NCBI GenBank assembly: GCA_022843805.1
Contig: JALHMY010000005.1
Span: 1-64,000, forward strand
DNA: 64,000 nt
Direction of reading: 5' to 3'
Source: Fuerstiella sp.
Lineage (GTDB): Bacteria; Planctomycetota; Planctomycetia; Planctomycetales; Planctomycetaceae
Position 1 is the first letter of the stretch. Each line of letters starts with the position of its first letter. Below are positions 55,937 through 60,071 of this stretch, piece after piece. The position numbers and the translations under genes were made by a program. Under the pieces are notes generated by a model. That model was not told the origin of the DNA, ran no database searches, and saw only the letters and a program-made list of their open reading frames with translations.

Positions 55937-56617
55937 ATGACGAAGTATCGCGTTGCAGTTGACGACATTGAAGAACTGGCAGAACTCGAAGACAGCTGGC
56001 TTCCGGCGGACTACATCGCCATTCTGACATCTCTCGATATCGCCGACGCAACTCAAATCGATGTGGCTGACCTTCGTGAAATGACTCTGTTTGCTTTGCA
56101 GGATCTGGAACCTCCGCAGGCGGCCGCTGTCCTGTTAAAGTACAAACTGGGGACAAAGCTCTCCCCCGGTCAGATCAAAAACTACAGCATTGAGAGTCAG
56201 CACGAACGCCTGTGGGAACAGTCTGCAGATCTCGCACTGCATCAATCCCTGTTTGCGGTTGCCGGTATGCTGAACGCAGTGAATGCGATGGCGTTCCCTG
56301 TTCCGGATGCACTCCGTGTTTCTCTGAGCATTCAATGTGACGATACCGCACAACTGGCAGTTTTCAGCGATGCCATGAATCGCGTGCTGCTGATTCAGAT
56401 GCTCTCGGCCGGGATGACTGAATCGGCCATTCTCAATCGTTTGTTTGGGGAACAGATTGCCGCTGGCAAGGTCCCTGATGCGGATTCAATCATCTGGCGA
56501 ATCGATGTGGATTCTTCGGACGATTCGATGCGTCGAATCAAAATCACCAGCTCGGCATACTGGCTGAATGCGCTGCGGGAAACCGAATCCTTTGAATGGG
56601 ATTCCGGGGCTGGTTAG
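55937..56617 (+). CDS. protein of unknown function
   Basis: 226 residues from MTKYRVAVDDIEELAE (AGGGA seven bases before the ATG; an upstream frame to 55877 has no coding character). No membrane span or signal peptide. An early acidic helical domain (residues 1-75; LDIADATQIDVADLREMT) is followed by another helical region. The family was not recognised. It is followed by a palindromic array. Confidence 0.6.
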   Translation: MTKYRVAVDDIEELAELEDSWLPADYIAILTSLDIADATQIDVADLREMTLFALQDLEPPQAAAVLLKYKLGTKLSPGQIKNYSIESQHERLWEQSADLALHQSLFAVAGMLNAVNAMAFPVPDALRVSLSIQCDDTAQLAVFSDAMNRVLLIQMLSAGMTESAILNRLFGEQIAAGKVPDADSIIWRIDVDSSDDSMRRIKITSSAYWLNALRETESFEWDSGAG

Positions 56618-56950
56618 TCCACGGGTCAGGCTCGTGGGTGACTGATTGCGTCACCCAGCCACCACGAGCTCGCCTCGTGGGCTCGCCGGGCCTCTGCGCC
56701 AGGAGCGAGGCCGCGGAACGGGGATGTTTTAAGGAACGTCGCCTGGCGCAAAGGCGAGATAAACCCACGAGTCAAGCTCGTGGGCGACCGATCGCGTCAC
56801 CCCATCCCCCACGAGCTCGCCTCGTGGGCTCGCCGGGCCTGTGCGCCAGGAACGAGGCCGCGGAACGCGGGTGTTTGACAGGAACTTCGCCTGGCGCAAA
56901 GGCGAGATAAACCCACGAGTCAAGCTCGTGGGCGTCTGATCGCGTCCTCC
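56618..56950. repeat. 148-base tandem array of CACGAG palindromes
   Basis: Two tandem units (56618-56763 and 56764-56911) and a partial third share ccacgagtcaagctcgtggg-type hairpins and cgcctggcgcaaaggcgaga. The core also occurs singly at 36016-36080. Frames through it translate as Arg/Pro-rich strings and are not genes. Confidence 0.85.
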
Positions 56951-56980
56951 GGCCGTTTCGCGTTCGAACAGTTCTGCCGA

Positions 56981-58180
56981 TCAGTTTCCTCCGGCACGCT
57001 CCGCGATGGCCACTCCCTTCGATGAAAACTCGGGCCAGTCCTGGTCCAGCTTCATCTCTCTCAGCTGCGATCCAATCGCCTGCAGGTCCCAGATATGGAT
57101 CGAATTCGCATAACTCGACACGACAACCAATTGCGTACCGTCGGGCGTGAAGCCGTGCCAGGTGGCTCGATCGCCGTGCGGGTCATCGAACTTCGCCACG
57201 GTCCGGCCTGTCCCAACCTCCTTCAGATGAATTGTGGCCGGGGCTATTGATATGGCCATGAACCTGCCATCAGGAGAGAATGACACATAGCTTGGAGAGT
57301 GAGCAGACTCACGAGCAAACCGCTGGCCAGGCTGCAGGGTTGATACATCCCAAAAGCTAACTTCGTCGGATCGCGAAATGATCAGGCTGCGGCTGTCCGG
57401 GGTGAAAAACACGAATGTCTGCTTTCCGACGGTCCATTCATGAACCAGTTTTCCGGAAATCGCGTTCCAGAGCCGTACCGTTTGCGAATGCCAGCCACTG
57501 CTGGCTGCCCATTGCCCGTCCGAGCTCAGCGCACGCACATCGCCATCGGGATGAACGCCCAGATGCTGGCGCACGTTTCCGGACTCAAGGTCCAGTATCT
57601 GGTTCTCGCCGCCTTCCCGGGTAACCACCGCGAGTGTGCGGCCGTCAGAACTGCGGGCAAACCACGCCCGTCCCAACTTCGACAGTTGTCGCGGCGACCC
57701 CAGTTGCAGAAGGTCGGTCGGCTTCGATTCATCAATGGTGACGGGCCACTGTTGCAGTCCGTCAGAGCCACAGGTGAGAAGGTTCCAGGACTGGTCAGCC
57801 TGAGAGGCGGGATCGAAACAGACAAAGTTCGTACCGGGCGGAAGCGAGCTGAGTTCCCGGCCGGAATTCAGGTCCCACAGTCGAACGCCGGGCTCGACGC
57901 CCTCGGCCTTGCCGACGGCCAGCACACGCCCGTCCGGACTAATATCGGCGGGACTATAGGCGCCCCGACCGAATGCTCCATTCGAGACGAGTGTGCAGTA
58001 CTCACGGCTCGTCGTCACCTCAAGGAATTCTCCTCGTCCGCGGGTGAGCGCACCTGCGATCCACCTGCCGCTTTTGCTAAATCGAGGATGGCCGCTGATT
58101 GCAACTGGCAATTGAAGCAGGGGCCGACCAGTTGCTTTTGAAGTTGCGCACTTTCCAACCGCGTTGGGGTTCAATCGCAT
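56981..58180 (-). pseudogene. WD40 C-terminal half of a planctomycete Ser/Thr kinase gene, N-terminus lost
   Basis: 399 codons forming at least five WD40-type blades (LWDLNSGRELSSLP, QTVRLWNAISGKLVHEWTVG, SHSPSYVSFSPDGRFMA, HIWDLQAIGSQLREM). The last motif, SQLREMKLDQDWPEF, is typical of the end of planctomycete kinase-WD40 proteins. The first ten codons (MRLNPNAVGK) lie in a dispersed repeat that is present again at 58633-58735. No kinase motif (HRD, DFG) is encoded before it. It is best read as the truncated end of a larger gene. Confidence 0.7.
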
Positions 58181-58259
58181 TTTCCTGTTTTTTCCTGGGG
58201 TGCGCCGTGTTCACGGCGACCCCAGGCTTTGTTGTGCAACCCCGGTTGGGGTTGGAAAA
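58157..58259. repeat. 103-base dispersed repeat, copy 1
   Basis: Contains gttggggttcaatcgcattttcctg, then a cctggggtgcgccgtgttca and cggcgaccccagg hairpin and gttgtgcaacccc. An almost identical copy lies at 58633-58735. It overlaps the first codons of the WD40 frame. Confidence 0.9.
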
Positions 58260-58335
58260 ATAGACATCGCCGGTTTTGCTCATCAGGGCTCGTTACATGC
58301 GATTGTTCATCAGGATTCTGTACGGCGGTGTTCTT

Positions 58336-58442
58336 CGTACTCGTACTCGTACTCGCTCGTACGGTTCCGGCACGGATCAGTGTCGACCGCAGCATCACGC
58401 TTTTTTCGAGTACGAGTACCGTTGCACTGAGTACGAGTACGA
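58336..58442. repeat. GTACGAGTAC-type palindromic repeat region
   Basis: Several cgtactcgtactcgtactcg repeats (58336-58355) face cgagtacgagtac (58407-58419) and gagtacgagtacg (58429-58442), forming a long hairpin. It is a simple-sequence palindrome also common in planctomycetes. No gene is encoded. Confidence 0.75.
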
Positions 58443-58632
58443 TTTTCCTGCGGAACGACCAACGCTGTGAAGCGTTTTTTTGAGTGAGAACAGTGCGATT
58501 CAACCCGGAACGGGTTTCACAACAAAGCCTGGGGTCGACGCGAAGCGGCGCACCCCAGGTTCGTGATGTTTGTTCGCTGCGAACCCTGTAAGGGTTCCAC
58601 AAGGCAGCGATCAATCGTTAAACGAACTGTGG

Positions 58633-58735
58633 AACCCCGTTGGGGTTCAATCGCATTTTCCTGTTTTTTCCTGGGGTGCGCCGTGTTCACGGCGACCCCA
58701 GGCTTTGTTGTGCAACCCCTGTCGGGGTTGGAAAA
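58633..58735. repeat. 103-base dispersed repeat, copy 2
   Basis: A near-identical partner of 58157-58259 in the same orientation. Between the copies is gtttcacaacaaagcctgggg, a partial inverted relative. The 780 bases between the WD40 frame and the sigma gene are largely such repeats, with no kinase domain. Confidence 0.9.
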
Positions 58736-58940
58736 CGGATATCGTCTGGCTACCAGAGACGCCCCATGTTCCCTGACAAAAATCCTTCACAGCGTTGCCT
58801 TGCAGGCCTTTGAGTGTTGAAGTCCAGGCAAACCGGGGCCTGACGGCTTAGGCAAACGATTTGTCAGCCCTCCGGTTTTGAGTCGCAATCCACGCCACTA
58901 TGGTGCAAACTGTTCTCACGCCACTGAATCCGATGGTCTG

Positions 58941-59498
58941 TTACTCTGCCTTCAGATCCTGCCGAAGCCAGGATCTGGCGTATTCCCAGGCGTAATAGGC
59001 GGCTCGCTCTGAAATGCCAAGCGTGTCGGCCGTCTGCTGCATCGTCAGGCCGGCGAAGTATCGAAGTTTGACGATTTCCGCTGCCTGGGGATCTGCCGCC
59101 GCAAGCCGGTCCAGCGCTTCACTCAGCGCGAGCAATTCCTCGGCGTCCTGTTCGGTTTCGATGGAAAGTGCATCCAGTGGCTGCCGCTGCGCGTTACCGC
59201 CTCGCTTCAGGGCGGCCTTCTGCCGAGACCGTTCGATGAGGATACGGCGCATGGCTTCAGCCGCGGCCGCCAGAAAATGGCGATGATTCTGCCACGAATC
59301 TGTCGCTGCTGGCTTCGCCAGTCGCAGATACGCCTCATGAACGAGGCCGGTGGCATCGAGCGTCTGGCCGGGCTTCTCATGCGCAAGCTTGGCGGCTGCC
59401 AGACGTCGCAGCTCGTCATAAACGAGCGGCAGCCAGTCTTCTGTCGCTCGAACGCTGCCTTGATCAATCTGTGCCAGGATGCGGGTCACTTCAGACAT
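58941..59498 (-). CDS. ECF-family RNA polymerase sigma factor (TIGR02999-like)
   Basis: 185 residues from MSEVTRILAQIDQG. The sigma-2 region holds LVHEAYLRLAKP near residue 51 and HFLAAAAEAMRRILIERSR near 75; the sigma-4 region has LRYFAGLTMQQTADTLGISER near 145 followed by YAWEYARSWL. The HEAYLRL and RRILIERARxxxxxKRGG patterns mark the planctomycete-type ECF group, normally encoded immediately upstream of a Ser/Thr kinase with WD40 repeats. Here the kinase part is missing downstream on the same strand. The start was placed at the Met giving the family length. Confidence 0.93.
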   Translation of the reverse strand: MSEVTRILAQIDQGSVRATEDWLPLVYDELRRLAAAKLAHEKPGQTLDATGLVHEAYLRLAKPAATDSWQNHRHFLAAAAEAMRRILIERSRQKAALKRGGNAQRQPLDALSIETEQDAEELLALSEALDRLAAADPQAAEIVKLRYFAGLTMQQTADTLGISERAAYYAWEYARSWLRQDLKAE

Positions 59499-59713
59499 GA
59501 GAGACAGAATACCCCAAAAAGAATGTTGCGTTCCCGCGCTGATCGCAAGTGCACGGCACCGCACTTTCTGACATGAACATAGTTTACATGGCGAGCCTGG
59601 TCAGGGCTTTGATCAGCTTCTGAATTTTTGGTTCTTCTGCGATTTTCGTGGTTGCCATGAGAATTGACTGGCTATCGTGAAATGCGAAACTGAGCGTCAC
59701 GCGGTTCAGTTCC

Positions 59714-59781
59714 GTTTAACCCGTGGCCGACAGGCCAGGTTGTCTCCACTTCACGCCTGGCCTGTCGGCCACGGGTTAAAC
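59714..59781. repeat. perfect 26-bp inverted repeat
   Basis: Arms gtttaacccgtggccgacag (continuing gccagg) and cctggcctgtcggccacggg (continuing ttaaac), spacer 16 bases. Perfectly complementary over 26 bp. It lies between the sigma factor gene and the next small gene and could be a terminator-like hairpin or a mobile palindrome. Confidence 0.85.
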
Positions 59782-59864
59782 GATCTGTGCGAGTCATACG
59801 GCAGACACTGTCCCAGGAGACACTGGACCGAGTCCCTTTGGCAGCTGACGATGAAGGAGAATTG

Positions 59865-60071
59865 ATGATGCTCAATGACAGCGGCATGCCAGCCACACCC
59901 ATTCCAAAGAGGCAGCCGGTCCAGTTGCCGGAGCCAAATGCTCCCAGTCATTTTTTCCGGTATTATAAACTGGCACCCGGAGAGCGGGTTGTTAATATCG
60001 GTCCTCCCGCCTTCAGCCGGTTTTTGAGCCGAGGCCGCCAGCGAATTGTGGTTGCAGGCGGTCGAAAGTAA
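59865..60071 (+). CDS. small conserved-looking protein, unknown function
   Basis: 68 residues from MMLNDSGMPATPIPKRQPVQ, with AAGGAG seven bases ahead. A longer frame from 59787 exists, but this start has the better ribosome site. The Pro-rich N-terminus leads to SHFFRYYKLAPGERVVNIG and a Gly/Arg-rich end. It lies three bases before the SGNH hydrolase gene, so they are probably cotranslated. Family not recognised. Confidence 0.5.
   Translation: MMLNDSGMPATPIPKRQPVQLPEPNAPSHFFRYYKLAPGERVVNIGPPAFSRFLSRGRQRIVVAGGRK

What the first reader, a model, noticed from the sequence alone, without database searches (positions are those of the whole stretch)
56981..59498. ECF sigma factor next to a WD40 reading frame with the kinase domain missing
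In planctomycetes this class of sigma factor is usually followed by a Ser/Thr kinase with C-terminal WD40 repeats. Here the WD40 half is intact, but its first codons come from a dispersed repeat and about 780 bases of palindromic repeats replace the kinase domain. The sigma factor itself looks whole, so it may now act without its kinase partner, or the WD40 part may be expressed alone.
Basis: partly seen in the sequence, partly recalled or inferred. Interest (0 to 1): 0.6.

Follow-up and report, generated by a model that had tools for sequence, protein, structure and literature searches.

The report
Mobile repeat decapitated a sensor kinase
In this planctomycete a small mobile DNA repeat sits where the front two thirds of a sensor kinase gene should be, leaving a stump of the sensor and a sigma factor without its usual neighbouring kinase; it is a well-resolved but mostly ordinary case of gene decay.

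Summary
The observation largely holds. The window has an intact kinase-associated ECF sigma factor (58941-59498, minus) and a WD40 frame (56981-58180, minus), and no kinase domain was found in its 64 kb. A congeneric genome (G001) has the orthologous sigma factor (89% identical) followed by a full 1199-aa kinase-TM-WD40 gene; the window frame matches only residues 804-1172 of it. Two distant genomes share the long architecture, so the short form is derived. The dispersed repeat is a 338-341 bp MITE; its inverted ends and 9-bp target duplications match a full-length transposase element in the same genome. A truncated MITE copy supplies the ATG and first eight or so codons. The window's full copy lacks its target duplication, as expected after a deletion. 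The sigma factor has the Thr-for-acid motif of kinase-activated ECFs, so losing the kinase more likely silences it, or leaves it to paralogous kinases, than frees it. The WD40 stump, without membrane helix, is most likely a young remnant. Assembly collapse at the repeat is not excluded.

The parts
58941..59498 (-). ECF sigma factor, 185 aa, kinase-associated type (PF07638/TIGR02999), region 2.2 motif DATG with T50
56981..58180 (-). WD40 reading frame, 399 aa: first codons from the MITE, a short stretch of uncertain origin, then 8 WD40 repeats (counted by eye) orthologous to residues 804-1172 of the G001 kinase-WD40 protein
58157..58180 (-). MITE-derived start: ATG plus 7 codons (MRLNPNAV); AGGA tracts 2 and 12 nt upstream (58183-58186, 58193-58196; read from the sequence)
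58135..58156 (-). 22 bp between the last clearly repeat-like base and the first base aligned to G001: origin uncertain
58157..58459 (-). truncated second repeat unit and array spacer with GTACGAGTAC inverted tracts; the same composite order occurs on C86 and C1
58460..58797 (-). full 338-bp MITE copy with inverted ends CAACGCTGTGAAG; no target duplication at this copy (2 of 9 bases match)
58799..58891 (-). 93 bp next to the MITE with one 89% copy elsewhere in the genome (C129)
56619..56954 (.). second dispersed palindromic repeat family just beyond the WD40 stop

Best explanation
An ancestral sigma/kinase-WD40 pair, still whole in a congeneric genome, was broken in this lineage. Copies of a MITE, probably mobilised by an IS4-like transposase, entered the region (shown: repeats, shared ends, target duplications at other copies, a full-length element). 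A rearrangement or deletion then joined the inside of a MITE unit to the middle of the kinase gene, which removed the kinase domain, the membrane helix and about six WD40 repeats (junction and absence shown in the assembly; the event inferred). By chance the MITE carries an ATG behind AGGA tracts in frame with the remaining repeats, so an open frame of 399 codons survives. The sigma factor is intact but lacks the neighbouring kinase expected to phosphorylate its region 2.2 threonine; most likely it is silent or runs on cross-phosphorylation by paralogous kinases (inferred). The WD40 stump is most likely a young gene remnant (inferred).
For: G001 orthologue of the WD40 part, 74% identical in a 1220-aa open frame, with Pkinase at 124-414, HRDLKPSN and DFG motifs and a hydrophobic stretch near 446-466, in the same order and strand as an 89% identical sigma factor. 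Homologues in G015 and G011 are colinear with the whole kinase-WD40 protein. Own genome: best match to the kinase half 56%. Of 42 other related sigma genes examined, 2 lie at contig ends; 32 of the other 40 have a same-strand kinase within 1.8 kb downstream and the remaining 8 have one within 6.7 kb on the same strand; the window has none. MITE: 13 of 16 elements (11 of 14 MITE-sized, 2 of 2 full-length) have 8 or 9 of 9 flanking bases duplicated, against 11 of 240 mispaired flanks; the window copy, one of the 16, has 2 of 9. Full-length 1667-bp element with the same ends, a perfect 9-bp duplication and a DDE transposase. Thr at the region 2.2 site in 12 of 12 sigma sequences compared.
Against: The WD40 frame aligns to G001 over 369 codons without stop or gap and dN/dS is about 0.08; relative-rate counts show no excess change (window 22, G001 19; and 6, 6), and for sigma the window lineage has fewer unique changes than G001 with each of ten outgroups. 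This would fit maintained proteins, though it mostly reflects time before truncation. The stump is predicted to fold as a beta-propeller (mean pLDDT 75.5). In a neutral simulation with an assumed indel rate an intact frame has probability 0.28 at 1% and 0.02 at 3% divergence, so a remnant must be young. Flanking genes of the pair differ between G000 and G001. No related sigma factor was found beside the G015 and G011 homologues in the 8-11 kb read. Repeats lie at several contig ends.
Confidence: 0.68

Rival explanations
1. Assembly collapse: the kinase half still lies between two direct repeat copies and was dropped when the assembler merged them. The gene would still be interrupted by the MITE at 58157, but kinase sequence would exist.
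For: 172 contigs; repeat copies or their ends lie within some hundred bases of several contig ends; two direct copies of the core lie 476 bp apart here; a missing piece of 2-4 kb could have been filtered out (inference).
Against: No N in the window; composite arrays of the same order occur elsewhere; no match to the kinase half above 56% in the assembly; a random misjoin would not give the sigma-WD40 order and strand of G001.
Confidence: 0.15
2. Exapted stand-alone WD40 protein: the MITE-supplied start makes a new soluble propeller that binds partners of the old pathway, for instance as decoy or scaffold.
For: Open frame of 399 codons with eight WD40 repeats (by eye), a propeller-like model (ring closure and blade number not measured); AGGA tracts and ATG in the repeat; no accelerated change.
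Against: No membrane helix and, by eye, no signal peptide, although the WD40 region follows the helix in the relative; the event is probably young, since 26 other places with 250 bp or more of the unit are still 90-94% identical and the two copies in the window are 97% identical over 103 bp; the other 17 start cassettes in the fetched loci lead to 12-122 codons only, two of them cut off by a contig end.
Confidence: 0.12
3. Ancestrally short gene: the WD40 protein was always separate and the kinase fusion in G001 is new.
For: Besides the own genome only one of 59 genomes has a close orthologue.
Against: G015 and G011 homologues are colinear with the whole kinase-WD40 protein, and the window's first codons are repeat-derived.
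Confidence: 0.03

Closest known systems
EcfP/PknT (Vibrio parahaemolyticus) and EcfK/PknS (Xanthomonas citri), ECF43
   Same: ECF sigma factor with Thr among replaced acidic residues of region 2.2 and a Hanks-type kinase gene beside it (passages of PMC13147305, PMC8103513, PMC8999054)
   Different: Here the kinase is lost; the motif is DATG, which keeps the first acid; assignment among ECF43, 59, 61, 62 or 217 was not tested.
Planctomycetota Ser/Thr kinases with C-terminal WD40 arrays
   Same: The G001 orthologue has kinase, hydrophobic helix and C-terminal WD40 array, as described in PMC11032199 (abstract and passages)
   Different: The window protein keeps only the last 8 repeats (by eye), without kinase or helix.
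MITEs of IS4-family insertion sequences
   Same: Short, bounded by inverted ends, 9-bp target duplications, full-length partner with a DDE_Tnp_1 transposase in the same genome
   Different: Best IS4 model is below its curated cut-off (96.5 versus 115 bits), so the family name is provisional; strong internal palindromes (fold z -14).

Membership tests
Kinase-activated ECF sigma factors (ECF43-like) | ECF sigma domains of the PF07638/TIGR02999 type (that this type is the kinase-associated one is supported here) | tested here: met
   PF07638 187.1 bits, TIGR02999 189.9 bits, cut-off 126.15
Kinase-activated ECF sigma factors (ECF43-like) | Acidic region 2.2 motif replaced, with a phosphorylatable Thr | tested here: met
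   DATG with T50; Thr in 12 of 12 sequences compared; the first acid is kept here and in G001, Gln in the other ten
Kinase-activated ECF sigma factors (ECF43-like) | Hanks-type kinase gene beside the sigma gene | tested here: not met
   None in the 64-kb window; present at the G001 orthologue
Kinase-activated ECF sigma factors (ECF43-like) | Activation by phosphorylation | not testable with these tools
   Needs biochemistry
Kinase-WD40 Ser/Thr kinase | Pkinase domain | tested here: not met
   No Pkinase in the window frame; present in the orthologue
Kinase-WD40 Ser/Thr kinase | WD40 array after a membrane helix | tested here: not met
   WD40 repeats present, helix absent (hydropathy maximum 1.0 versus 2.34 in G001)
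MITE of an IS4-like element | Inverted ends shared with a full-length transposase element in the genome | tested here: met
   CAACGCYGTGAAG at both ends; 1667-bp element with DDE transposase
MITE of an IS4-like element | Target-site duplication of fixed length | tested here: met
   9 bp: 13 of 16 elements with 8 or 9 matches, control 11 of 240; absent at the window copy
MITE of an IS4-like element | Transposase assigned to the IS4 family | tested here: inconclusive
   Best NCBIfam hit transpos_IS4_1 E 1.6e-27, below cut-off

The most novel reading that the evidence does not exclude
A MITE with a built-in ATG behind AGGA tracts acts as a portable translation start: by truncating a membrane kinase it created a soluble WD40 protein, and in the same event cut a phosphorylation-dependent sigma factor loose from its kinase, rewiring one signalling branch.
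Probability: 0.1. Interest if true: 0.55.

Novelty: new member of a known kind. Interest (0 to 1): 0.3.

Why it matters
It is a natural kinase-loss mutant of an ECF sigma/kinase pair, beside a congener with the intact pair, so it could show what a phosphorylation-dependent sigma factor does once orphaned. It also identifies one family of dispersed palindromic repeats in this genome as a MITE with a probable transposase source, which helps to read similar repeats and assembly breaks.

Tried and rejected
Short gene as the ancestral state: rejected, because G015 and G011 carry the long architecture. Kinase half moved elsewhere: no support in the assembly; best own match 56% (150 of 178 first-look candidates scored). 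Synteny beyond the pair: failed; the window's flanks are not next to the pair in G001, and in G003 the neighbour of apgM looks by eye like an aspartokinase, with no sigma match on that contig. Rfam: no match at gathering scores in 56000-60000. Promoter and terminator scan: one promoter-like site (shuffles 0.6) and one terminator-like site (shuffles 2.5), nothing notable. RNA fold of the start region: z -1.84, not used. Selection tests cannot date constraint after the truncation. The viral contigs gave no relative. A first target-duplication script gave no rows because of a faulty pattern and was corrected; elements whose ends did not fit its pattern (for example in L047, L048, L049, L051) were not counted. 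A paper search on repeat-donated starts listed nothing pertinent (listing only; 10 of 168 papers shown); searches for planctomycete ECF-kinase-WD40 pairs listed 2, 1, 0 and 5 papers.

Full report
Observation. On the minus strand, 59498-58941 encodes a 185-aa ECF sigma factor (PF07638 E 3.8e-55; TIGR02999 above its cut-off) and 58180-56981 encodes a 399-aa WD40 protein. A tblastn search with the G001 kinase domain at E<=1 found nothing in the 64-kb window. Between the two genes lie 760 bp, most of it repeat.

Relatives. All 59 genomes searched with the WD40 frame have WD40 matches, but besides the own genome only G001 (same genus) has a close orthologue: 74% identical over residues 15-385, inside a 1220-aa open frame; the next best, G015, is 35% identical. 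There an 89% identical sigma factor stands about 1.4 kb upstream of a 1199-aa frame with Pkinase (124-414), a hydrophobic stretch near 446-466 and a long WD40 array; a 276-aa frame without Pfam match lies between them. The window frame aligns without gaps to residues 804-1172. By eye the G001 protein has about 14 WD40 repeats, of which the window keeps the last 8. G015 and G011 homologues are colinear with the whole kinase-WD40 protein, so the long form looks ancestral; no related sigma factor was found beside them in the 8-11 kb read.

Is the kinase elsewhere? A search of G000-G003 with the first 803 residues of the G001 protein found, in the own genome, 148 matches of which the best is 56% identical (150 of 178 first-look candidates scored), against 74% and 89% for the retained WD40 and sigma parts. 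The genome is rated 100% complete with 1.56% contamination, in 172 contigs.

How regular is the pairing? I examined 42 related sigma genes other than the window's: 7 of 8 in G000, 15 of 19 in G001, 2 of 2 in G002, 5 of 7 in G003, and 13 that I chose from the higher-ranked hits in other genomes; the listing was cut, so not all could be taken. Two lie at contig ends (L129, L131) and could not be judged. Of the other 40, 32 have a same-strand kinase within 1.8 kb downstream; six have one 2.3-6.7 kb upstream and two have one 4.5-5.2 kb downstream. The window has none.

The repeat. The 616-bp spacer query has 126 matches in the own genome; besides the window, 26 places carry 250 bp or more at 90-94% identity. 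The ~300-bp unit has 31 weaker matches in G001 and some in 8 other genomes, so with the own genome 10 of 59. Extending the copies shows an element of 338-341 bp bounded by inverted CAACGCTGTGAAG-like ends. Thirteen of 16 elements with both ends in the fetched loci (11 of 14 of MITE size, 2 of 2 full-length) have 8 or 9 of 9 flanking bases duplicated; mispaired flanks reach this in 11 of 240 cases, a rate raised by a target preference like CCCNNNGGG. The exceptions are the window copy (2 of 9), L045 and L050 (6 of 9 each). The same ends bound a 1667-bp element with a perfect 9-bp duplication and a 532-aa DDE transposase, nearest to IS4 models but below their cut-off. It is thus a MITE with a probable source. 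The missing duplication at the window's full copy (58460-58797) fits the removal of one flank by a later rearrangement.

The junction. A second, truncated unit runs to 58157, where two alignments with C86 and one with C1 stop; the C28 array stops earlier, and a looser alignment inside the window reaches 58147. Homology to the G001 gene starts at 58134. The ATG at 58180 and the first eight or so codons are repeat, with AGGA tracts 2 and 12 nt upstream. The start cassette occurs 18 times in the loci searched, two of them in the window; only that at 58180 gives a long frame, the other 17 give 12-122 codons, two of them (L039, L058) cut off by a contig end.

What the products may do. The sigma factor has DATG in region 2.2; Thr is at this position in 12 of 12 sequences compared (window, G001 and ten others, which have QAT). 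In EcfP this Thr is phosphorylated and supplies the negative charge needed to bind RNA polymerase; EcfK is similar but also uses a second site, and its T51A variant still works (passages of PMC13147305, PMC8103513, PMC8999054). By analogy the window's sigma factor, without its neighbouring kinase, is probably off or served by paralogous kinases. The WD40 stump is predicted as an all-beta propeller (mean pLDDT 75.5, residues 1-17 below 50), with best Foldseek hits to WD40 proteins; ring closure and blade number were not measured. It has lost the membrane helix; WD40 domains of such kinases are predicted mostly periplasmic (PMC11032199, abstract and passages).

Remnant or gene? There are no stops or gaps over 369 aligned codons; dN/dS is about 0.08 for WD40 and 0.06-0.09 for sigma (dS about 2 for WD40, near saturation). 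Relative-rate counts show no excess of changes in the window lineage: 22 versus 19 and 6 versus 6 for WD40, and fewer than G001 with each of ten outgroups for sigma. These values mix time before and after truncation. A neutral simulation gives an intact frame with probability 0.28 at 1% and 0.02 at 3% divergence (the indel rate is assumed), so a young remnant is compatible and an old one is not. I favour a young remnant, with assembly collapse and exaptation as live rivals.

Verdict. The mechanism, mobile-element truncation of a kinase gene, is ordinary; the interest lies in the orphaned, probably phosphorylation-dependent sigma factor and in the MITE-supplied start.

Noticed in passing
L180 (G000 C43:10200-12900), 505-2171: Full-length 1667-bp insertion sequence with a 532-aa DDE transposase, a perfect 9-bp target duplication and the same ends as the window's MITE; several contigs of the genome carry such an end within a few hundred bases of their start.
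   Followed up: partly
L181 (G000 C8:69200-71500), 338-1906: Related 1569-bp element with ends CAACGCCGTTAAG, a perfect 9-bp duplication and a shorter, transposase-like frame (249 aa, named by eye), possibly decayed.
   Followed up: partly
L116 (G001 C111:84000-100000): Another sigma/kinase neighbourhood in the congener in which both matches contain in-frame stops, perhaps a second decaying pair.
   Followed up: no
56619-56954: A second dispersed palindromic repeat family (copies 146-148 bp apart; 76 matches in the genome, itself included) directly beyond the WD40 stop codon.
   Followed up: partly
59713-59782: A perfect 27-bp inverted repeat with 16 bp between its arms, upstream of the sigma factor, with an 84% copy on contig C28.
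   Followed up: no
L061 6505-7335: A 276-aa frame without Pfam match between sigma factor and kinase in G001; no match in the window.
   Followed up: no
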